45,800 bases of DNA from a virus, in the IMG/VR virus record IMGVR_UViG_3300049483_000115, positions 1-45,800 of that record; one strand, written 5' to 3'. The notes under the pieces were generated by a model. That model saw only the letters and a program-made list of their open reading frames with translations. It did no database searches and was not told the origin of the DNA. This document shows, piece by piece, positions 15,189-29,008 of this stretch (position 1 is the stretch's first letter; each line of letters opens with the position of its first letter). A program made the position numbers and the translations under genes.

Positions 15189-15367
15189 TAGTCGAACGAC
15201 TTCCTCACGTCAGACTTCTTCACCGAACGGTCCACCGGAGCCGCGGGAACGTCCTTGGTGGCAACTTCTTCGATGATCTCCGCGCGACCCTGGCGCTTCC
15301 ACAACTGCGCGAGATGGTCCTCGACGGTTTCAATCTTCCCGTCAGGCCACTTGATCTTGGTCGGCAT
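15188..15367 (-). CDS. small protein of head module, unknown
   Basis: 59 aa, start ATG 15367 chosen because GGAGG lies ten bases upstream; it overlaps the end of the glycosyltransferase gene by 26 bases. Highly charged (PTKIKWPDGKIETVEDHLAQ), with no membrane segment. Small proteins at this position sometimes bind the capsid or head-tail joint, but nothing in the sequence proves that. Confidence 0.55.
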   Translation of the reverse strand: MPTKIKWPDGKIETVEDHLAQLWKRQGRAEIIEEVATKDVPAAPVDRSVKKSDVRKSFD

Positions 15368-16238
15368 ATCGCAAAACCTCCCGTTCATGCGCGAACGACG
15401 CAAGCGTTGCCAAGTCACGCATGTTGGAATTGGGTGAGTTCACAGACACACGGCGCGCGACCAATTCGCACAGCATCGCAACGTCGTCAATGTTGATCTC
15501 TTTCAGGTGGCCGAACTGCGAGCCGACGTGCGCGCGTACCTGATAGCCGAGTTCGTGAGCACGCAGACAGAAGTCAAGATCCTCTCCACGCAGGATCTTC
15601 CCATTCGGCGCGTACACAGTGCGGAACACCGGAGGCGCGTAGTCATCCGTTCCGACATCGGTCGAACACTTGTACAGCTTCCCGTCAACGCTCTCGTACT
15701 CATCCGAAAACCACATCCGCTTGTCATCAAGAACGCGACGGCTTATCACCATCGTCGCCGTACCAGCGCCAACGATGGGCAAAACGTCGTCGCCCTCTTG
15801 CGGAACGATCGGATTGAACTTCGCATCTCCGTTCTTGTTGTAATCGAACAGGCACAACCGCAACGCCGGATCACGTCCCGGAGCGCTCGCGTCGAACGCC
15901 CACGCGCGGCCAGCGACGATATCCGCGTCAACGTCAAGCAACTGCAACGACGTTTCCGTCGGGATCATGTCCTCATCAATGAACCACAGCTTTTCAGCAT
16001 TCGGGCTCTTGTTGAACATGATTCCGATGAGAACGTTCCTCGCATACTCGACCGGCCGGCGACCGTTCACTACCTGCCACGAGAATCGCCACGGGCAATC
16101 TGGAGACAGAGACAACCGCTCCAAAACGTTCAAGAAGTGAGTTATCCCTACCGTGGTTCGCCCGGAGAGCGTTGGAATCGCAACGAATACATCCCGCTTC
16201 GCTGCCATCCGTCGCTTGATCTTGTCTTTCCAGCCCAT
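15342..16238 (-). CDS. GT-A fold glycosyltransferase (GT2-like)
   Basis: 298 aa, start ATG 16238 behind GGAG; a GTG two codons upstream is possible. The N-terminal FVAIPTLSGR, the acidic FIDEDMIP (DxD-like nucleotide-sugar/metal site) and the C-terminal block GEDLDFCLRAHELGYQVRAH with a downstream H (FGHL) form the usual layout of GT-A family 2 enzymes, which transfer sugar from a nucleotide sugar. It lies between capsid and connector genes, separated from capsid by a strong hairpin. Likely targets are virion proteins or a host surface glycan; the sequence does not say which. Confidence 0.8.
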   Translation of the reverse strand: MGWKDKIKRRMAAKRDVFVAIPTLSGRTTVGITHFLNVLERLSLSPDCPWRFSWQVVNGRRPVEYARNVLIGIMFNKSPNAEKLWFIDEDMIPTETSLQLLDVDADIVAGRAWAFDASAPGRDPALRLCLFDYNKNGDAKFNPIVPQEGDDVLPIVGAGTATMVISRRVLDDKRMWFSDEYESVDGKLYKCSTDVGTDDYAPPVFRTVYAPNGKILRGEDLDFCLRAHELGYQVRAHVGSQFGHLKEINIDDVAMLCELVARRVSVNSPNSNMRDLATLASFAHEREVLRYADQDQVA

Positions 16239-16255
16239 GCGCACTCCGCAAAGGT

Positions 16256-18666: not shown

Positions 18667-19541
18667 GATTCAATCCTCGCCCACGGGTTGAACCAATGCG
18701 CCAGAACCACCAATCCGACCATCCACGGCGGACACGCAATCACCGCAGGAACGATCACCGCGGCGGCTCCGGTCTGATACAGCCTCGAGCGATCATGGCA
18801 GAACGTTAGGTGCGCGTACCCTAACGCCAACGCCAGCACGCAACTTACCGCCGCAACGCTCGAATACAACGCGATAGGAACCAACACCGCCAGCGCTCCC
18901 CACGGGAGCACCATTTCCCGCGCGTCCAGCACCGCGCCGCGATGCGCTTCCCTGGCGCGGAGCATCGGCCGGTCCACCTTGTTCGCGAGCCACGCCGGCG
19001 GAGGAGCGTGCTCGACCAAGTACCACGCAAACGCAGGAGCTACCAAGCCGACTAGAAGGAACGGGTCAAGCGATAGCACCGCAGCCCATACCGGGACAGT
19101 CTCGCGAACCATCGCTCCGACCAACGCAACCGCAACCGCGGCCAATACCCAGCCGTGAAACGACAACCCAGCCGCAATCAGCGTCAGAACGTGCGCCGGA
19201 GCGTCCACAAGCACCGGATAACGTGACGCTAACCCTACCGTTCCAGGCAACCCGGCCCACAACGCAACGCCGAATAGCGACTGTCTCCAATCCAATCCAC
19301 GCGATGCGAAGTAAAACGCCACCGCGGGCCCGGAAGCAATCACGCACGCCGACGTAAACGGAGCCCACCAAGACGGATGCCGCATCATCGCAGGAACAAG
19401 ACACCGCAGATTGTACGGTCGCGGCATCGGAGCATCCGAAGAGTAGATCCGCCCATCCGGAGTCAACCGCTGGCCGTACTGCCAGACGTTCAACGCCCAG
19501 GCTAGAGCGGTTATCGCCGCGGCGGTCAGGTACAGGGTCAC
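18663..19541 (-). CDS. multi-pass integral membrane protein
   Basis: 292 aa, GTG 19541 in a GTGA overlap with the methyltransferase gene. At least seven hydrophobic segments are visible, among them VTLYLTAAAITALAWALNVW, LVGLVAPAFAWYL and a C-terminal VIVPAVIACPPWMVGLVVLA. The segment VGAMVRETVPVWAA recalls the conserved R-E motif of GT-C membrane glycosyltransferases, but this is weak. A membrane protein inside the head operon is unusual. With the adjacent methyltransferase and the nearby glycosyltransferase it may modify a host envelope glycan (inference). Confidence 0.6.
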   Translation of the reverse strand: MTLYLTAAAITALAWALNVWQYGQRLTPDGRIYSSDAPMPRPYNLRCLVPAMMRHPSWWAPFTSACVIASGPAVAFYFASRGLDWRQSLFGVALWAGLPGTVGLASRYPVLVDAPAHVLTLIAAGLSFHGWVLAAVAVALVGAMVRETVPVWAAVLSLDPFLLVGLVAPAFAWYLVEHAPPPAWLANKVDRPMLRAREAHRGAVLDAREMVLPWGALAVLVPIALYSSVAAVSCVLALALGYAHLTFCHDRSRLYQTGAAAVIVPAVIACPPWMVGLVVLAHWFNPWARIES

Positions 19542-20149
19542 TTCAGCACCTGACAAAGCGCCACACCACGCGGCGTAGGCAGGAAAATCGGAATCAGTCT
19601 GCCAGCACGCGCGAGCTGGATACACGCCTCACGAATTGTCCGATGATGCACGCCGCAATCGTGGAATCCAACAATCGTGCGCGAGTGCATGAACGGATAG
19701 AACCGAATGAACTCCTTCGCGCGTACATCGCCCGGCCCTGAGTCGAGCCACGCGAAGTCAATAGGGCCCTTCGGAGTGAACTCCAGGGAATCACCAAGAA
19801 CCGCGTTGACGTTAGGAGCCTTGAACACTCGGCGCTTCGCTTCCTTGTGCAGTTCCGGATCAATCTCGATCGTGTCAAGCTCGCCGTGGCCGTTCTCGAG
19901 CAACGCCGCGCCGATGCTCTCGGCCATGAACCCGCGATGCGTCCCGGTTTCGATCACATACTCCGGCTGTAACAACCGCACTAGCCCGCCGACGCCAGCG
20001 ATCACCTCGTTCTCGGTCGCCTCGACATCCTCCGAGGTCCAGAAGTCCGGCCGCGGACACTCCGAACGCGGCTGAGTAAATCGAGACTCGCGACGGTCTT
20101 CGCTGTCCTGCGTTGCGCGGGTCAGTTCGAGCGCGGACATGGTTTTCAT
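19538..20149 (-). CDS. class I SAM-dependent methyltransferase
   Basis: 203 aa, ATG 20149 in an ATGA overlap with the portal-MuF gene. The Rossmann-type SAM-binding site is seen in YVIETGTHRGFMAESIG (motif I), TIEIDPELHKEA (acidic end of strand 2) and NVNAVLGDSLEF followed by IDFAWLDSGPG. The layout resembles the Methyltransf_24 family, whose members often act on sugars or small molecules, and it lacks the DPPY/SPPF motif of DNA methylases. It is coupled to the membrane protein downstream; a role in glycan or virion modification is inferred. Confidence 0.7.
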   Translation of the reverse strand: MKTMSALELTRATQDSEDRRESRFTQPRSECPRPDFWTSEDVEATENEVIAGVGGLVRLLQPEYVIETGTHRGFMAESIGAALLENGHGELDTIEIDPELHKEAKRRVFKAPNVNAVLGDSLEFTPKGPIDFAWLDSGPGDVRAKEFIRFYPFMHSRTIVGFHDCGVHHRTIREACIQLARAGRLIPIFLPTPRGVALCQVLK

Positions 20150-22266
20150 GCGTTCCCCGGCACCGGCACCGCAACGCACCGGCAGTTAATCACTTCCTCG
20201 GCTGGCCCGGCTGGGTCCTGTGGGAAAAGTAGGCCGTTTGAGAATGGCTCTCCGATAAATACTGTCTGTCCGTCCACTCCACCTTCGGATGCGGGCTTGA
20301 TATGCGAATCCCTAACGTCCGGGTCGCGGCTCGATACCCACTCCTGGCGCTTGATCCCGGCCTGCTTCATCCCTTCGTTACGCGACACGTTGAACGCCTT
20401 TCCTGTTTCGGTGCGTGCAATCGTCCGCGCGCGTCCAAGGCTGATTTGCAACGTGTTCGCGATGCGGTCGCGTAACTCCTCGACCGTCTCTCCGGAGTCA
20501 ATCCCTTCTAGAATTGACGCGCGCAAGTGTCGCTCGACCGTCTCGTCCACTTTGACAATCTGCCCGGTGAGAATCGCCAGCTTCGCGCGCATGATCGGAT
20601 CATCCACGTTGAACGAAATCCCAACGCCCAACTCCGCCATGACAGACTCGCCACCACGCTCCGCAATCGCACGATAGATCGGCTCCGCTAGCCTACGCAG
20701 CTTCCGCTTGGCTTCGTCAAGGTCGAATACAAAGAACCGCCCATCGCGCGTGACCGACTGCTCCCGAGCACGGTCGAACACCGCGAGCGCCTCTTTCGCT
20801 ATGTCATGGAAGTGCTTCCGAACCATCCGCTCAAACCGCACTTCCAAGTCACGCGCGCGACCGATCACCGCACGCCACACCATCGCGCGCCGCGTCTCTT
20901 CGTCGCCCATTGCAAGCATCAGCCGCGATGCGGTGTCATTCACTCCGGCCGGCGGCATCGGAGGCGCAACCGGCGCGATTGGATTCTCGACAGACTCCGC
21001 GGTCACCAGGCCAGCCGACAGGAAGCCAACATCCGGCGACGGGTGCTTGTCCGGATCGAAGCCGAGTTCCAGCCGTTCGTTAATCTCACGGAACGGAACA
21101 CCCATCTCGAAGAACGTACGCGCAATGTTCGACTTCGTTTCCATGTCATCAAGCATCGCCCGTACAGATTCCCACTTCGGCCACGCTCGCTCGCTGACGT
21201 TCAACTTAACCAGAAAGTCTTCGTTGATTACCGACTGCTCTTCGATGAGGAAATTGTAGATCGTGCTATTCCAGTAAATGTCCTTTTGCTCTCGTGCGTT
21301 GTACCGGATGGTAGTATCCAAGAACCCGGCAATCAGCGGCGGAACGCCGGTGCGCGCGAGGATCGTATCCCGCGCCATGCCACGAAGCTCAAGGAACGAC
21401 ATATCTTTCTGCGTCACGCCGAGGTCCGTGAACGTCCAGCCGCCGGGGAGAATCGCGATACTCCGCTTCGTTCCCGCGTGCCGCTGATTCCACGTCCGCT
21501 GTATCTCTTTGCGTTGGTCGCGGTCGAGCGACGTGCCTTGACCTGGAATCAGCAGCCCGCTCGGTATCCCGTTTTGCTCTCCGAAGAATCGTGCGTTCCA
21601 TCCCGCGGCATCATGGTCTGACTGCAACTCGATTGCGATTGACGCCGCGAGCGGCAAACCACGCAACGGGTTGTACGGATTCCACCGGCGCGAGATAGTC
21701 AACCGCCGTTCGTCCAGTTCCTCTTCCGCGCCGTCGCGCATGAGTACCCAACGAAGCGAACCATTTGAGCGTTGCTTCACTTCGACATTCGCAGGACACA
21801 ACAAGGCGATACGGTCACCGCCGCCAGTCATCGCGGCACGCTGCGCAGACACCGGAGCGCCCGGGCGCATCGCTACCATGTCCGGGTAATACCAGATCCA
21901 TTCGCCCCAAATCAGCTTGGATAGGTACGATCCAATCCACAACTGATTCCCGAGCATGTACTGATTCGGGTTGCGCCACAGGTCCAGAACCGGCGAGTCC
22001 TCAATCGGATCTTCGTCGCTCGGATCGGTCAAGTCTCGTGGGTACATCTCCCACTCGACCGCCGCAGCATCGCGCGCAATGACTTCAATGCAACGCGAAA
22101 ACGTCGCATGCTCAACATACGGCTTCGTGAGTTTCCCGGCGCGATTCTCGAACAGCCCGCGAATCCAGTCCTGAGCATCGTTCCACGATTCGCGCCCGGG
22201 CGTGCCGAACGATACACCGAACAGGCCCTTGGCAATACGGCGTGCTGTACGTTGGAAAGCGTTCAT
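20146..22266 (-). CDS. portal protein fused to MuF-type minor head domain
   Basis: 706 aa, ATG 22266 one base after the preceding stop. Residues 1 to about 430 are an HK97/SPP1-type portal (for example RFFGEQNGIPSGLLIPG, TFTDLGVTQKDMSFLELR, RDTILARTGVPPLIAG). The C-terminal ~150 residues are a MuF/SPP1 gp7 domain: GRARTIARTETGKAFNVSRN, QEWVSSRDPDVRDSH, DGQ and the terminal EEVINCRCV. The portal is the dodecameric gate for DNA; MuF proteins enter the head through it. They are usually separate genes, so the single-chain fusion is notable. Confidence 0.92.
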   Translation of the reverse strand: MNAFQRTARRIAKGLFGVSFGTPGRESWNDAQDWIRGLFENRAGKLTKPYVEHATFSRCIEVIARDAAAVEWEMYPRDLTDPSDEDPIEDSPVLDLWRNPNQYMLGNQLWIGSYLSKLIWGEWIWYYPDMVAMRPGAPVSAQRAAMTGGGDRIALLCPANVEVKQRSNGSLRWVLMRDGAEEELDERRLTISRRWNPYNPLRGLPLAASIAIELQSDHDAAGWNARFFGEQNGIPSGLLIPGQGTSLDRDQRKEIQRTWNQRHAGTKRSIAILPGGWTFTDLGVTQKDMSFLELRGMARDTILARTGVPPLIAGFLDTTIRYNAREQKDIYWNSTIYNFLIEEQSVINEDFLVKLNVSERAWPKWESVRAMLDDMETKSNIARTFFEMGVPFREINERLELGFDPDKHPSPDVGFLSAGLVTAESVENPIAPVAPPMPPAGVNDTASRLMLAMGDEETRRAMVWRAVIGRARDLEVRFERMVRKHFHDIAKEALAVFDRAREQSVTRDGRFFVFDLDEAKRKLRRLAEPIYRAIAERGGESVMAELGVGISFNVDDPIMRAKLAILTGQIVKVDETVERHLRASILEGIDSGETVEELRDRIANTLQISLGRARTIARTETGKAFNVSRNEGMKQAGIKRQEWVSSRDPDVRDSHIKPASEGGVDGQTVFIGEPFSNGLLFPQDPAGPAEEVINCRCVAVPVPGNA

Positions 22267-22267
22267 G

Positions 22268-22576
22268 TCAGTACCGCTTCCCGCCGGTCGAATTACGTTT
22301 CGGCTTGCGACCTGTCTTAACGGATCGTCGCGCCCTACTAAGTATGCGCGCGGTACGCTTCGGAACTTCAAATGATAACAACATGCGCGTGTAACTGAAC
22401 GGAGTTAACTCATGTTTCATACCTCGGAACTCCCCCAATGGGAGTACCGACTTGCCATGGACTAACGAGAATCGCGGAGTGAGAACTTCGCCACCGCCGA
22501 TCGTATGGACAAATGCGCCACCCGGCGCGGGCCTTTCACCCAACAGATGCCGCAAGAGATTTACCGGAGCGTTCAC
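22268..22576 (-). CDS. conserved-position small protein between TerL and portal, unknown
   Basis: 102 aa, GTG 22576 in a GTGA overlap with the terminase stop. The C-terminus is very basic (RRSVKTGRKPKRNSTGGKRY). The centre is beta-like with HTIGGGEVLTPRFSLVHG. No family was recognised; the basic tail might contact DNA or RNA. Confidence 0.55.
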   Translation of the reverse strand: MNAPVNLLRHLLGERPAPGGAFVHTIGGGEVLTPRFSLVHGKSVLPLGEFRGMKHELTPFSYTRMLLSFEVPKRTARILSRARRSVKTGRKPKRNSTGGKRY

Positions 22577-23859
22577 GCCACCCACTCCACGCGCTGATTC
22601 CCGCAACGCAGCCGGCCCCATGACGCAAACGCGAGCGCCATAACGCAATCGTCATGCTCGCCCGCTGGCGCTTCGTATCGGTAGTGCATGCTCGAGGTGC
22701 GCTCGTACCGGAAGACGCTCAACTCGTGCTGCATCGGCGGAAGGTCCGCAAGCTTGATCCGCTTCTCTTGGAAATCCGCCGCGAGACGTAACACGGCCTC
22801 CTGCTTCGTCTGCCCGGTAGTGGTAAACGGAATGTAATTCACTCCGATGCGGTCGAACTCTTGCGTGATAGCGATCCCTGGCCCGTTCGTCTCAACAACA
22901 ATCGGCGCGTGGTACTGCTCCTGCAATCGCTTCATTCGCTGCGCCGCATCGGGATAACTCACTCCGCGCATTCGTTCCATCGCACCGGCACAGTAACCGT
23001 TGACTCCAACGACAACCGCGACGAGGTAGTCTTGCAGCTGTGCAACGTCAAGGCCGATGACGTACGAGTCGCCGTTTGGTCCTGCGAACTTCGCCGCGGT
23101 ACTGACTTCGTGGACGTTGCGGAATACCGCAGACTCGTCTTCGGTCCACTCCGCGTCGTACAATCTTCGGAACTCGAATTCCGGCAACGATGCGCGTTCT
23201 TGCTTGATGAAGTCCGCATACTCTTCCGCCTTACCAGGACCTTCAGTGAGCAGCGCTTTGTACTTGTCTTCCCACGTCCATCGATGCAGCGAGTACACAC
23301 CGGGCCATTCGCCGGTTTCGGCCAGCCCGCACAACTTGCGGAACGGGCCCGCCACCATTCCAGGATTGCCAATGTAATGGATCGGACCCATCGTGCTCGA
23401 GCGCCGCGAACTAATCGCAGACTGAGCCGTCGGAGTCAGCAGCCCAGCCTCGTCAACAACCGCGGCGGCAATCGGATCGCCCATTAAGTTCTGTTCGCGC
23501 TCCCACGATCGGAACTCGATCACCGATCCGTTTATCAACCGCACAATCGGAAACGGTGACATGACCGGCTCGCCGGCCATGATCCCAGCCGATCGGCAGA
23601 GCGATATCACGTACCGCAGTCCCGGCCGTATCTGGTTGTACGTCGGCGCGAGCCACCAGAACGGATGCACACTCGTCGGATGCTCCCACGCATACGCGAT
23701 AAGCCAACACGTCTCCGCAACGGTCTTTCCGACTTGTGTAGCGCTGACGGTCGCAACGTCGCGCGCACGATCACTCACCAGCGCCCGTTGGAAGCTCCGC
23801 AGTCTCGGCAGCTTCAATACCCTGCGAGACTGAATCGCCTTCTGCGAAGATGGCGGCAT
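22573..23859 (-). CDS. terL: terminase large subunit
   Basis: 428 aa, start taken at ATG 23859, which overlaps the small subunit by 89 bases. The ATPase carries SATQVGKT (Walker A), then AAAVVDEAGLL (Walker B with catalytic Glu). The RNase H-like nuclease is seen in YVIGLDVAQLQDY, VETNGPG and the C-terminal EHDDCVMALAFA, which supply its acidic metal ligands. It cuts concatemeric DNA and pumps it into proheads through the portal encoded next. The packaging strategy (cos, pac or headful) cannot be decided from sequence alone. Confidence 0.93.
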   Translation of the reverse strand: MPPSSQKAIQSRRVLKLPRLRSFQRALVSDRARDVATVSATQVGKTVAETCWLIAYAWEHPTSVHPFWWLAPTYNQIRPGLRYVISLCRSAGIMAGEPVMSPFPIVRLINGSVIEFRSWEREQNLMGDPIAAAVVDEAGLLTPTAQSAISSRRSSTMGPIHYIGNPGMVAGPFRKLCGLAETGEWPGVYSLHRWTWEDKYKALLTEGPGKAEEYADFIKQERASLPEFEFRRLYDAEWTEDESAVFRNVHEVSTAAKFAGPNGDSYVIGLDVAQLQDYLVAVVVGVNGYCAGAMERMRGVSYPDAAQRMKRLQEQYHAPIVVETNGPGIAITQEFDRIGVNYIPFTTTGQTKQEAVLRLAADFQEKRIKLADLPPMQHELSVFRYERTSSMHYRYEAPAGEHDDCVMALAFASWGRLRCGNQRVEWVA

Positions 23860-24508: not shown

Positions 24509-26839
24509 TCAGGTCGTTTCTCGGAGCGAATAAAAGGAACTGGGTCCAGAACCGCGTTTAGAGATGATCCAGTTACCTACAGGTGCGTCAACGAACCTGG
24601 CCAGAACGGATCTACTGAAGGACATTTTTCGCCCGTGCTCCGAGGGTGATTTCCGGGTGAAGGCGAACACGTCCAGGGTTTCGGCAAGGTTGAAAAGCTC
24701 CGATGCGGTTCTTTCGGTGTGCTGGAACTGTTCGAACCAAGCCTCGACGAATGCTCTCAGGTCTTCACCCATTGGGTCCGCGGCACGGGCCCAGCCGCGC
24801 TCGTTGGTACGCCAGCGGGTCCAGCCGGCGATGGGTAGGATGCCGCCGACGATAGAGCTCCATGATTCGAACCCGCCTTTGGGTTGCGCTCCGCCGATGC
24901 GGTCGCCGTCACGCCAGCGGATTACCATGCCCAGTAAAGCCTCCAGGATGGCCCTACGGTTCTCCCGGACGTATTCGCGGAGGTTCGGGTGCCGGAAGTC
25001 TTTGCGCGCCTCTGGCTCGTCTGTGAGCGGCGCTAGCCATATCGGGACGGAGCGCTTGACGATTTCCTCGGTTGCGCGGACGTTGTTTCCGGAAGCGACG
25101 AGGGTTAGGGTGTTTGGGAGTTCGACTATCTGCTTTGCGTAGAATCCGCGTCCGGAAAACGTGGTGGACGTGAGGAGCGATGCGAGCGTGGATGAGTCCA
25201 GGAATTCCCGGATGTTGTCAAGGTGAGCGATGCTCGCGCCGCGGATGAGCATATCGGTGATGCGTTTTTCGCGTTCGGCTTCGTCGCCGGAGAATGTGCA
25301 CGCCGAGGTGGGTTTTCCGAGTATTACTCCACCTAGAATTTCCTCCGCCAGTTTGGTTTTGCCGGCGCGCGGGATGGGCGACAGAACTAGGTGGAGTGGG
25401 ACGTTGCCGTCGCAAGCGTGGCGGATGAGTGGTGTTAGGAGAAGGCCGATCATGTTGTCACGCGAGCTGGAGCCTTCGGACGGGCCCGGATGGTCCGTTT
25501 TCCACGGGAAGTCCACGAGTAGGTTTTCAAGAAGCGCATAGGCACGTTCTGGGTCGGTGGATTCCGGGGCGATGCCGCGGAGTTCTGGCGGTTCATCGTA
25601 GTAGGCGCGATGGTCTGCGTTCCATCCCGGGACGGTGAGGGTTAGGTGCGTTCCTAGGAACACGGGATAGGAGACGAGTAGATCGAGGCGGCGGACGTGT
25701 TCGGAGCGTGCGGCCGCGTCGAGGACCACGCCGGCGTGATCGGCGTTGCATGCGATGTACCGTTGGGTACGAAGTTCGCTAGATCCGGCCCACTTGAATA
25801 GGCGACAGTGTTGGTCTATCAGGATGCGCATGCGATTGACGGACATGGGCGCGAATTGCATGCTACCGGGCGGGCCGATGAGTTCTCCGGGGACGTTGCC
25901 GCGGGTGTAGATAGTTCCGGGCGGGAAGCGTTCCAGGACGGCGTTGGTGAAGTCATCGTTTCCGATTTCGTGGTGTTCGCCGTTGTCGTCGGTATGTCCG
26001 CCCGGAGTGAGTACGTCCGTTGAATGGGTTTGGGTTTGCCGTACCCGTACCGGTGCGCGTCGAGGCGATGCGGCGTTGAACGCGGATTGGATTGTGCGTT
26101 CGATTTCGCGGTCCTCGAGCCCGATGGATAGTGCGACGGAGCGCAGGTCGGCTTCGGCGGTTGCTGCAAGTTCGCCACCGTGAACGAGCCCAGCGATAGC
26201 GAATGCGGCACGGTTTAGTGAGTCGTTGCGGGTGCCTTCGGGAGCGGATGCGAGCGTTGCGAGTTCGCGTTGGAGCGCGGTGCGTCCGTAGGGTGTTCCG
26301 AGGCTGACTGGTTGCGACACAGCGGGTCGGGGCGGCGCGAGACGTAGCAGGATGCGCGGGTCGAGTTCTGCTAGGTCGGCGTCCGAAGGCGTGATGATCC
26401 ATTGGTATTTGTGTCCGGTATCCGGATGGGTCGAGCCGACGAATACGACCTGGCCGCCGGTGCCGCGGGTGTCAATGTGCGGGCCGAGTTTGGATGCGGA
26501 GTTCCCGGGGCACGGATCGGGAGCGCGGAAGTATAGATGGCGGTTGCCCGGCCGCGATTCTACGGATGGTGTACGCGGCTCCGGGATGTTGAGGCCAGCC
26601 CAGAGTTTCGATAGGTCACCGCCGGCGCTGGCGTCTTCGTCAATGACGAACACACCGGAGGCGGTGCCGGTACGCAGTCCGAGGTTGTAACCTTTGTCAA
26701 TCCATTCTCGGATCTGTGTTTCCGTTGCCGGTTCGGCTTGTTGCCAGCCGCGGATGAGAGGGATTTTGCCGTTCAGCGGAGTCAGCGCCCAGCCGCGAGC
26801 GAGTGCTGCTAGGGCTTCGGAGAGAAGTGAGTCTGTCAC
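24509..26839 (-). CDS. primase-polymerase (AEP) fused to D5-like helicase
   Basis: 776 aa, GTG 26839. The N-terminal ~190 residues are a bifunctional primase/polymerase domain: ALARGWALTPLNGKIPLIRG, the acidic pair in GVFVIDEDA, PGNRHLYFRAP and GGQVVFVGSTHP. The C-terminal half is an SF3-like ATPase: Walker A in SPIPRAGKTKL, Walker B in ASIAHLDNIREF, then FSGRGFYAKQ and RSVPIWLAPL. It would unwind and prime, and perhaps extend, phage DNA. No separate replicative DNA polymerase was seen. It overlaps the upstream nuclease gene by 143 bases, far beyond the usual overlap in this genome. Confidence 0.85.
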   Translation of the reverse strand: MTDSLLSEALAALARGWALTPLNGKIPLIRGWQQAEPATETQIREWIDKGYNLGLRTGTASGVFVIDEDASAGGDLSKLWAGLNIPEPRTPSVESRPGNRHLYFRAPDPCPGNSASKLGPHIDTRGTGGQVVFVGSTHPDTGHKYQWIITPSDADLAELDPRILLRLAPPRPAVSQPVSLGTPYGRTALQRELATLASAPEGTRNDSLNRAAFAIAGLVHGGELAATAEADLRSVALSIGLEDREIERTIQSAFNAASPRRAPVRVRQTQTHSTDVLTPGGHTDDNGEHHEIGNDDFTNAVLERFPPGTIYTRGNVPGELIGPPGSMQFAPMSVNRMRILIDQHCRLFKWAGSSELRTQRYIACNADHAGVVLDAAARSEHVRRLDLLVSYPVFLGTHLTLTVPGWNADHRAYYDEPPELRGIAPESTDPERAYALLENLLVDFPWKTDHPGPSEGSSSRDNMIGLLLTPLIRHACDGNVPLHLVLSPIPRAGKTKLAEEILGGVILGKPTSACTFSGDEAEREKRITDMLIRGASIAHLDNIREFLDSSTLASLLTSTTFSGRGFYAKQIVELPNTLTLVASGNNVRATEEIVKRSVPIWLAPLTDEPEARKDFRHPNLREYVRENRRAILEALLGMVIRWRDGDRIGGAQPKGGFESWSSIVGGILPIAGWTRWRTNERGWARAADPMGEDLRAFVEAWFEQFQHTERTASELFNLAETLDVFAFTRKSPSEHGRKMSFSRSVLARFVDAPVGNWIISKRGSGPSSFYSLRETT

Positions 26840-27158
26840 CGTACCCCCAAGATATCAGAGCGTTTCGGAAGTCATCGGTTGAGCGACAGAGGCAGTAGCG
26901 GACGTTCATTTTCTCACAGGTAGCGCGCCACGCGCGTTGAGGCGGGGAAAGATTTCCTCGAACGGTTTTGAATTCGAGCTCGAACGCGCGACCATCGTCA
27001 GTGAAGCCGTAAGCGTCGGCCTGTCCCGGCACGCCGATTTGGATAGGCGTCCCGTTGCGCGTGTAGTACAGGCCGACGTTACGGCGGAAGATGCGGAGCC
27101 ACGGGAGGCGTCCGAAGGTTGCGATTACTGAGGATTGGAGACTGCGCTCGGTGTACAT
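26697..27158 (-). CDS. VRR-NUC type nuclease
   Basis: 153 aa, ATG 27158, which sits exactly against the first unit of the repeat array. The core matches VRR-NUC PD-(D/E)XK nucleases: GTPIQIGVPGQADAYGF (acidic metal ligand), then AFELEFKTVRG (E-x-K) and LSPPQRAWRATCEK (the Q-rich helix). Such proteins cut branched or flap DNA in replication and repair, which suits its position before the primase. The last ~48 residues overlap the primase N-terminus; a one-base shift near 26860-26875 would instead end the protein at the TGA in the primase GTGA start. Confidence 0.8.
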   Translation of the reverse strand: MYTERSLQSSVIATFGRLPWLRIFRRNVGLYYTRNGTPIQIGVPGQADAYGFTDDGRAFELEFKTVRGNLSPPQRAWRATCEKMNVRYCLCRSTDDFRNALISWGYGDRLTSLRSPSSTRSRLGADSAERQNPSHPRLATSRTGNGNTDPRMD

Positions 27159-28015
27159 GGTGCTTTCTCGCTCGTTGGCTCACTCGTTCTAGACGGTATT
27201 TTCCAGGGTTACGGTTCACTCGACCGTCCCGGTACTCTCCGACACTGCGGTTCACTCAGCGCTCCCGGTACTTTCGCAAGGTCCGGTTCACTCGATACCG
27301 ACGGTACTTTCCAATTCAACGGTTCACTCCCGATTCTCGGTACTCTCGACCGCAACGGTTCACTCCTGGTACCCGGTACTCTCCGTTTGTGCGGTTCACT
27401 CTATCTCCACGGTACTTTCGTCGCTTGCGGTTCACTCCCGCTTTTCGGTACTCTCGCGGTGTTCGGTTCACTCAGCCTTCCCGGTACTCTCTCTCACTTC
27501 GGTTCACTCAGTGGAATCGGTACTCTCTGCCGCAACGGTTCACTCGCTGACCTCGGTACTTTCGCGAAACCTCGGTTCACTCTCGGTCCTCGGTACTCTC
27601 CTCTTGGGCGGTTCACTCGCGAGCCCCGGTACTCTCAGTCGCAACGGTTCACTCCACGGTGCCGATACTATCTCGCCACTCGGTTCACTCACTGGACACG
27701 GTACTCTCTTTCCTCGACGGTTCACTCGCCGAAGACGGTACTTTCTGCCAACACGGTTCACTCAGTGCGCTCGGTACTTTCACGCGCGACGGTTCACTCC
27801 GCTTTGCCGGTACTTTCTCGGGCTTCGGTTCACTCACATGCCGCGGTACTTTCAGGCCTCACGGTTCACTCAACCTTGACGGTGCTTTCACCCAAAACGG
27901 TTCACTCTTTCAAGACGGTACTCTCTGCCGCAACGGTTCACTCGCCGCTTACGGTGCCTTCGGTACTCGCGGTTCACTCACCGTCACCGGAACTGTCTGG
28001 CACGCCGGTTCTCAT
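27159..28015. repeat. alternating two-box array, 18-bp period, with variable spacers
   Basis: About 48 units. Box A (GGTTCACTC) and box B (GGTACTCTC or GGTACTTTC) alternate without exception. Each is followed by a 9-base spacer whose final base is C (only the first unit differs) and whose other eight bases are nearly all different. Twenty-two exact A boxes run from 27213 to 27979. Ten B boxes read GGTACTCTC and eight GGTACTTTC; the rest are one- to three-base variants, mostly near the two ends. Two spacers have 10 bases (27564-27573, 27709-27718). The array fills the space between two genes: its left edge touches the VRR-NUC start codon, and a box A at 27971-27979 supplies the stop codon of the upstream gene. 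Its function is unknown. Confidence 0.95.
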
Positions 28016-29008
28016 AGGCCAATTCGGCGGTGCGATGAAGTGCGCGTGTTCTGGACGTGTAAGGATATACGGTTTCGGCGGTGGGGTGTTGAACTTCACT
28101 TCGTACATGACGTGGTGGAGGTGCGACAGGAAGAGTTTAACGGCGTAGCGCTTGGCGCGTAGGTCAATGCGACCGTCCGGGAGTTTACCGGCGCGGTAGG
28201 CTTGTCTGGTTGTGTTGTCTCGGTTCCACTTCTTCTCGGTCAGTGCGCGTTCTGCGGTTTCCTTGAACATCCCGGCTTCGTTGCGTTGGATTTCGAGTTG
28301 TTTCCGTTGCTCGTACACCTTACCGTAGATGTCCTTCTCCGAGCCGCGGAGCTTGCAGAACGATTCTCCGATCTTCCAACACAGCACCTTGAGCTTTGCG
28401 TTCCACGGGCGGCGCGCGAGTCCTCGAACGACGTTTTCTTCGGTGAGTTTCTCGGCTAGTTTGCCGTCCTTCTTGAGTAGGCAGAGCACTTCCCATGAAT
28501 CCGGTCGGCGTCCGAGACGTTGACATGCAGCGAGGAACGTTTCTCTGGCGTCACCGTTCCACAGTTCCTTGACTAGCGCCTTTGCGCCGTCCTTACCTAT
28601 CCATTCGTTGGTTGTGTCCAGCCCAGCGAATCTCCAGAAGTGGCCCACCGTGGGGGCCTTGGATATATCGAAGTGCGCGACGAGCCCAGCGGCGAGTACT
28701 GGGCCGATGCCGTGGATTGACATAGCCCACGAACTGTCAACGCGCGACGATGCGTAGTCGAGCATGGCGCGCTTGATCTGCTTCTCGATTTTCTCGAATG
28801 CGGAGAAGGTCCACGCAACGAGCTCGTGCGGTTCGCCGTCGGCGTTTGCCATACGGATTTGCGCCTTGGCTTGGATGCGGTAGTCCTGAACACTGTAGTA
28901 AGTATCGGCAAGGTACCGGACCTGCTCTTCGCGCATGGTCCTGGCGCTCTTGAGAATGTCCTTTTCAATCTTTTGGATTTGAGTCTGTTCTAACTCTTGT
29001 GTGTCCAT
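27974..29008 (-). CDS. helix-hairpin-helix protein resembling IS110 transposase C-terminus
   Basis: 344 aa, ATG 29008 after GAGAGGGG. Residues ~93-130 (MSIHGIGPVLAAGLVAHFDI, then FWRFAGLD) match the helix-hairpin-helix Transposase_20 domain of IS110/IS116 proteins, and the later helices (KLKVLCWKIGESFCKL, IYGKVYEQRK, RAKRYAVKLFLSHL) follow the same order. The N-terminal ~90 residues are helical and lack the DEDD RuvC-like start, so a full IS110 recombinase is not evident. It probably binds DNA structure. Its stop codon is TGA read from a box A of the downstream array, so gene and array are physically joined. Confidence 0.75.
   Translation of the reverse strand: MDTQELEQTQIQKIEKDILKSARTMREEQVRYLADTYYSVQDYRIQAKAQIRMANADGEPHELVAWTFSAFEKIEKQIKRAMLDYASSRVDSSWAMSIHGIGPVLAAGLVAHFDISKAPTVGHFWRFAGLDTTNEWIGKDGAKALVKELWNGDARETFLAACQRLGRRPDSWEVLCLLKKDGKLAEKLTEENVVRGLARRPWNAKLKVLCWKIGESFCKLRGSEKDIYGKVYEQRKQLEIQRNEAGMFKETAERALTEKKWNRDNTTRQAYRAGKLPDGRIDLRAKRYAVKLFLSHLHHVMYEVKFNTPPPKPYILTRPEHAHFIAPPNWPMRTGVPDSSGDGE

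What the first reader, a model, noticed from the sequence alone, without database searches (positions are those of the whole stretch)
27159..28015. Array of alternating 9-bp boxes with hypervariable 9-bp spacers
About 48 units at an 18-bp period. Box A GGTTCACTC (22 exact copies) and box B GGTACTYTC alternate without a break, so the true repeat is 36 bp. Every spacer but the first ends in C and the other eight bases are nearly unrelated. A tandem array made by duplication should have spacers as alike as its boxes; here boxes stay fixed and spacers are saturated. Either the boxes are held by nucleotide-level selection or the spacers are actively diversified or acquired. CRISPR does not fit (9-bp boxes, 9-bp spacers, no palindrome, no cas). 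Iterons or partition sites do not normally alternate two forms with random spacers, and an 18-bp step (about 1.7 helical turns) does not put the boxes on one DNA face. Possible roles: a multisite platform for a phage protein, an RNA with many short guides, an origin or centromere, or a decoy. I know of no described system that looks like this.
Basis: seen in the sequence. Interest (0 to 1): 0.96.

Follow-up and report, generated by a model that had tools for sequence, protein, structure and literature searches.

The report
Phage TIGR guide-RNA array beside TasA
The striking box-and-spacer array is a TIGR array, a string of paired short RNA guides described in 2025, lying next to the gene for its partner protein TasA in an uncultured phage; it belongs to a known kind of RNA-guided system, but its many relatives show how such arrays reshuffle their guides.

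Summary
The array is real. At 27158-28015 two 10-bp boxes alternate with 8-nt spacers in 36-nt units (22 complete units plus partial ones at both ends). Read on the minus strand, where all neighbouring genes lie, it is GAGUGAACCG-N8-GARAGUACCG-N8.

The gene that ends inside the first full edge repeat (27974-29008, minus) encodes a nuclease-less Nop-domain protein. Its profile matches solved TIGR-TasR (E 1.1e-27) and TasH (2.8e-16), and its predicted structure matches them first. This is a TIGR-TasA system (Faure et al. 2025, PMC12045711): a dual-repeat array processed into 36-nt tigRNAs whose two spacers pair with opposite DNA strands.

The same architecture, always on the tas strand, lies beside about 80% of the relatives fetched. 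Their edge boxes covary at two pairs (GAGCGAGCCA, GAUCGAGACA, GAACGAGUCA and others), so selection acts on RNA. Relatives with 93-97% identical flanks share few guides; shared blocks break at edge and loop boxes alike, pointing to modular recombination. No targets were found above chance.

The box end CCG instead of CCA, in both repeats, is an uncommon variant seen in five distant systems.

The parts
27158..28015 (-). TIGR dual-repeat array; 36-nt units edge-8-loop-8, 22 complete units, plus a truncated first unit and an incomplete last unit
27974..29008 (-). tasA: 344-aa Nop-domain Tas protein without nuclease domain; its TGA stop codon lies inside the first full edge repeat
28006..28015 (-). 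degenerate 5' edge repeat (ATGAGAACCG) inside the 3' end of tasA, start of the array
   Evidence: sequence in register with the 36-nt unit
27988..27997 (-). degenerate loop repeat (GACAGTTCCG) inside the 3' end of tasA
27970..27979 (-). first full edge repeat GAGTGAACCG (box A), first of 22 exact copies
27916..27925 (-). example loop repeat GAGAGTACCG (box B)
27158..27167 (-). last loop-like box GAAAGCACCA; its final A is the first base of the next gene's ATG
26697..27158 (-). downstream gene that starts in the last box: 153 aa, weak match to phage endonuclease/Holliday junction resolvase families; probably not part of the system

Best explanation
A phage-borne TIGR-TasA system. The minus strand is transcribed through tasA into the array (inferred). 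The pre-tigRNA is cut in each edge repeat (GAGUGAACCG, box A) into about 23 tigRNAs of 36 nt, each holding 8-nt spacer A, a loop repeat (GARAGUACCG, box B) and 8-nt spacer B (inferred from the tested homologues). A symmetric TasA dimer holds the edge repeat in one protomer and the loop repeat in the other, and the two spacers pair with opposite strands of about 16 bp of DNA. Having no nuclease domain, TasA would bind and bend the target rather than cut it, most likely to repress or disadvantage competing mobile DNA or to regulate host or phage genes; this last step is inference, with no target known. Boxes are conserved because TasA reads them and because the edge halves must pair; spacers are free and turn over by recombination at the boxes.
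For: The adjacent gene's family profile matches PDB 9mty (TIGR-TasR) at E 1.1e-27, TasH at 2.8e-16 and IS621 at 3.7e-6. The AlphaFold model (pLDDT 92) has TasH/TasR chains as its 11 best PDB matches. Array geometry (alternating 10-nt repeats, 8-nt spacers, 36-nt unit, adjacent to tas) equals the published definition, including a phage TIGR with 16 nt of spacer per guide. Of 85 viral loci (window included), 70 have such chains without any pairing requirement; all chains found are on the tas strand, none on the other. Edge positions 3-8 and 4-7 change together: G-C/U-A/A-U and C-G/U-A. The last box base agrees between edge and loop within each system (44 AA, 5 GG, none mixed among systems with both called). 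Close relatives differ mainly in spacers.
Against: No RNA data, so transcription and processing are not shown. No terminator-like site was found on the minus strand in the stretch scanned, unlike many published arrays. No target exceeds chance. Sequence identity to characterised Tas proteins is low (17-19% in structural alignment).
Confidence: 0.96

Rival explanations
1. A DNA-level multisite platform (origin iterons, partition site or protein-loading array) bound by a phage protein at the boxes.
For: Boxes fixed at DNA level, long regular array, neighbouring replication genes (Prim-Pol, helicase).
Against: Edge boxes keep internal complementarity while changing sequence between relatives, as RNA pairing requires. 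The array lies on the tas strand in every chain found and can lie on either side of tas. The adjacent protein belongs to a family of RNA-guided Nop proteins.
Confidence: 0.02
2. A repetitive protein-coding gene on the plus strand (an ORF of 337 aa runs through the array).
For: The 27135-28148 plus-strand ORF is open through the whole array.
Against: Two 37-bp units shift the frame, so the repeat is read in three frames; spacers are unrelated in relatives; the flanking genes are on the minus strand.
Confidence: 0.005
3. An IS110-type transposon remnant whose transposase gene happens to lie beside a tandem repeat.
For: Pfam Transposase_20 (IS116/IS110/IS902) matches the gene at E 1.4e-4 and the PHROG is labelled transposase.
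Against: No DEDD catalytic domain in the protein; TasR and TasH match far better than IS621; the gene-array association recurs across most of 85 loci.
Confidence: 0.01

Closest known systems
TIGR-Tas, solo-Nop TasA type with dual-repeat array (Faure et al. 2025, PMC12045711)
   Same: Nop-domain protein, adjacent same-strand array, two alternating short repeats, dual spacers, 36-nt unit, phage-borne, edge pairs supported by covariation, box motifs matching between edge and loop.
   Different: Boxes begin GA rather than the UG of TasR arrays and here end CCG rather than CCA; longer than the usual 5-15 units (22 complete); the array begins inside the tas reading frame and runs to the next gene's start codon; no terminator seen.
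SpTIGR-TasH of Salicola phage CGphi29 and TaTIGR-TasR
   Same: SpTIGR also has 16 nt of spacer per guide; homologous protein core.
   Different: Those carry HNH or RuvC nuclease domains; this protein has neither.
IS110/IS621 bridge-RNA recombinases and box C/D snoRNPs (Nop5)
   Same: Shared Nop-type RNA-binding fold and two-segment guide logic, as discussed in PMC12045711.
   Different: No DEDD domain, no bridge RNA, no kink-turn or fibrillarin partner seen here.
CRISPR array
   Same: Constant repeats with variable spacers beside an effector gene.
   Different: 10-nt alternating repeats, 8-nt spacers, no cas genes, split guide.

Membership tests
TIGR-Tas | Tas protein with Nop domain encoded next to the array | tested here: met
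   Profile to TasR 1.1e-27 and TasH 2.8e-16; Foldseek best matches TasH/TasR; tas stop codon lies inside the first full edge box
TIGR-Tas | two alternating repeats of 8-12 nt with short spacers in a 36-nt unit | tested here: met
   10-nt boxes, 8-nt spacers, 36 nt
TIGR-Tas | edge-repeat base pairs supported by covariation | tested here: met
   Positions 3-8 and 4-7: 80% and 70% Watson-Crick against 51% and 43% if independent, with no pairing required in the search; some loop boxes are included, which lowers the values
TIGR-Tas | box C/D-like ends match between edge and loop repeats | tested here: met
   44 systems A/A, 5 systems G/G at the last base, none mixed where both were called
TIGR-Tas | array starts with 5' truncated edge repeat | tested here: met
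   Degenerate ATGAGAACCG at 28006-28015, in register
TIGR-Tas | array ends with truncated edge repeat and rho-independent terminator | tested here: not met
   Array ends in a loop-like box at the next gene's start codon; no minus-strand terminator-like site. The paper calls this typical; it is not a defining feature
TIGR-Tas | array transcribed and processed to 36-nt tigRNAs bound by Tas | not testable with these tools
   needs small-RNA sequencing
TIGR-Tas | tandem-spacer DNA targeting | tested here: inconclusive
   No target enrichment in relatives or own contig, nor for one guide in viral contigs (97 stretches against 117 for the control pattern)
TasA subtype | Nop domain without RuvC or HNH nuclease | tested here: met
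   No nuclease family found; all-helical model; the match covers TasR residues 123-325 only, leaving its N-terminal RuvC unmatched
IS110 transposase | N-terminal DEDD RuvC-like catalytic domain | tested here: not met
   The protein starts with helices of the coiled-coil region; only part of Transposase_20 matches
CRISPR-Cas | cas genes and repeats of roughly 25-36 nt | tested here: not met
   Boxes are 10 nt; the protein families found around the array contain no Cas effector or adaptation protein

The most novel reading that the evidence does not exclude
TIGR arrays of phages diversify without an adaptation module, by in-register recombination at edge and loop boxes that reshuffles half-units between co-circulating relatives and so makes new spacer A/spacer B combinations; and the Tas reading of the last box-C base (A or G) has switched several times together with changes in a conserved His-containing loop.
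Probability: 0.5. Interest if true: 0.72.

Novelty: new member of a known kind. Interest (0 to 1): 0.45.

Why it matters
TIGR-Tas was described only in 2025, and how its arrays arise, expand and change, and what they target, are stated there as open questions. This locus adds a large phage TasA array with an uncommon box variant. The related loci give direct comparative evidence on array turnover: nearly identical phage segments whose guides differ and whose shared blocks break at both repeat types. That makes recombinational shuffling a testable answer to the array-expansion question.

Tried and rejected
Coding repeat: rejected by two frame-shifting units and unrelated spacers. Known RNA family: no Rfam match in the window; no tRNA. 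Palindrome/hairpin array: no relevant inverted repeat. Target search: 769 guides against 1.36 Mb of related viral DNA gave 4 exact and 87 one-mismatch hits in the published geometry, against 0-4 and 69-101 for re-paired controls; own-contig hits are likewise not enriched; one window guide in viral contigs gave 97 stretches against 117 for a control pattern. Shared spacers between unrelated systems: 26 pairs observed, 20 expected, and the excess comes from one prophage held twice (L078/L101). PADLOC has no model for the protein. No tas match in the annotated phage collection.

Full report
What is there. On the plus strand the region shows CGGTTCACTC and CGGTACTYTC alternating with 8-nt spacers. 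The identified genes around it are on the minus strand, and read that way the unit is GAGTGAACCG-N8-GARAGTACCG-N8, 36 nt. There are 22 complete units between full edge boxes, a degenerate first unit that overlaps the 3' end of the upstream gene, and an incomplete last unit whose loop-like box ends in the start codon of the next gene. Box counts far exceed shuffles. Spacers are close to random with respect to each other, boxes almost invariant. Two units are 37 nt, so no frame is kept.

The neighbour. The gene at 27974-29008 (minus) is labelled IS116/IS110/IS902 transposase by Pfam, weakly, and transposase by PHROGs. A profile of 45 homologues matches the solved TIGR-TasR at E 1.1e-27, TasH at 2.8e-16 and IS621 at 3.7e-6. 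The AlphaFold model (mean pLDDT 92) is all-helical, with a long coiled-coil pair, and its 11 best PDB matches are TasH and TasR chains, with IS621 only after them. No nuclease domain is present, so the subtype is TasA. Compared with most relatives it has an insertion around residues 139-197, shared with a few others such as L014, L035 and L056.

What it is. Faure et al. (PMC12045711) define TIGR arrays as two alternating 8-12-nt repeats (edge, loop) with 9-nt spacers, 8 nt in the Salicola phage system, next to a Nop-domain Tas protein, processed to 36-nt tigRNAs whose two spacers bind opposite DNA strands. Every feature that sequence can show is met here, except the terminator and the truncated edge at the 3' end, which the paper calls typical.

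Which box is which. In the relatives, box A keeps two internal pairs through sequence change: GAGCGAGCCA, GAGUGAACCA, GAACGAGUCA, GAUCGAGACA, GAUUGAAACA, GAAUGAAUCA. In a scan that did not require pairing, positions 3-8 are Watson-Crick in 80% of boxes (51% expected if independent) and 4-7 in 70% (43%), although some loop boxes contaminate the set. The published edge repeat has an extra covarying pair, so box A is the edge repeat and box B the loop repeat. This is evidence for an RNA on the minus strand that does not depend on the protein.

Distribution. The search for related loci returned 80 viral loci and 15 bacterial genome loci, mostly MAGs of Acidobacteriota, Gemmatimonadota and others. 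Of 85 viral loci (the 80, four found by the box pattern, and the window), 70 contain a chain of at least five units. All chains found in the strand comparison lie on the tas strand, downstream, upstream or on both sides of tas.

Array turnover. In the L023/L024/L025/L030 group the flanks are 93-97% identical, yet L024 and L030 (96.7% over 10.4 kb) share 1 of 10 guides, and L023 and L030 share 8. Shared blocks are exact and begin or end at edge boxes 73 times and at loop boxes 27 times over eleven pairs of loci; spacers found in both positions are almost absent (one case), so exchange is in register. The same is seen in L019/L020/L021/L037. The simplest reading is recombination or gene conversion at boxes between co-circulating phages, plus duplication: in the window TTGCGGCA occurs twice. 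Metagenome assembly chimerism cannot be excluded for the shared blocks, but it cannot create the unshared spacers. I did not find this described in the main text of the 2025 paper, which calls array emergence and expansion an enigma; its supplements were not read.

Box-end variant. The window, L009, L010, L011 and L012 end both boxes in CCG; 44 other systems end both in CCA, and none is mixed among those where both were called. On a tree of 71 Tas proteins the label needs 4 changes (at least 2 forced by well supported branches), so repeated switching is likely but not certain. Among Tas columns, position 280 (His in 46 of 50 CCA systems; R, A, H, T, R in the five CCG ones) and 283 (Ala in 39 of 50; L, E, L, S, L) lie in the LPPAHIHARAKRY motif; with 269 columns tested, uncorrected P values near 0.001 are suggestive only.

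Targets. No test gave enrichment over re-paired guides or control patterns. The host of the phage is unknown; its terminase is distantly related to those of Thermus, haloarchaeal and Tunturiibacter phages.

Mechanism. Shown: architecture, homology, covariation, turnover in relatives. Inferred from characterised homologues: transcription with tasA, processing in the edge repeat by a host RNase with Tas present, dimer binding and dual-strand pairing. Speculative: the consequence, probably binding without cutting that represses or disadvantages target DNA, or gene regulation.

Noticed in passing
L023, L024, L025, L030, L038: Near-identical phage segments with very different TIGR arrays; shared guide blocks break at both edge and loop boxes.
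   Followed up: yes
window 27158-28015; L009-L012: Box end CCG in both repeats instead of the common CCA, with changes at Tas positions 280 and 283.
   Followed up: partly
spacers of all arrays: The first spacer base is biased to T or A (0.36 and 0.29 of 1426 distinct spacers, against 0.17-0.18 for C and G); later positions are closer to even.
   Followed up: no
window 15342-16244 and 19538-20179, minus: By reading only: a glycosyltransferase-like and a SAM-methyltransferase-like gene lying among the phage structural genes.
   Followed up: no
window 22573-23859, minus: Large terminase distantly related to those of Thermus P23-45, Halorubrum Hardycor1 and Tunturiibacter phages.
   Followed up: no
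L034, L044, L047, L049, L063, L064, L071 and a few others: Tas homologues with few or no detectable dual-repeat units of this design; they may have other repeat lengths or stem-loop arrays.
   Followed up: no
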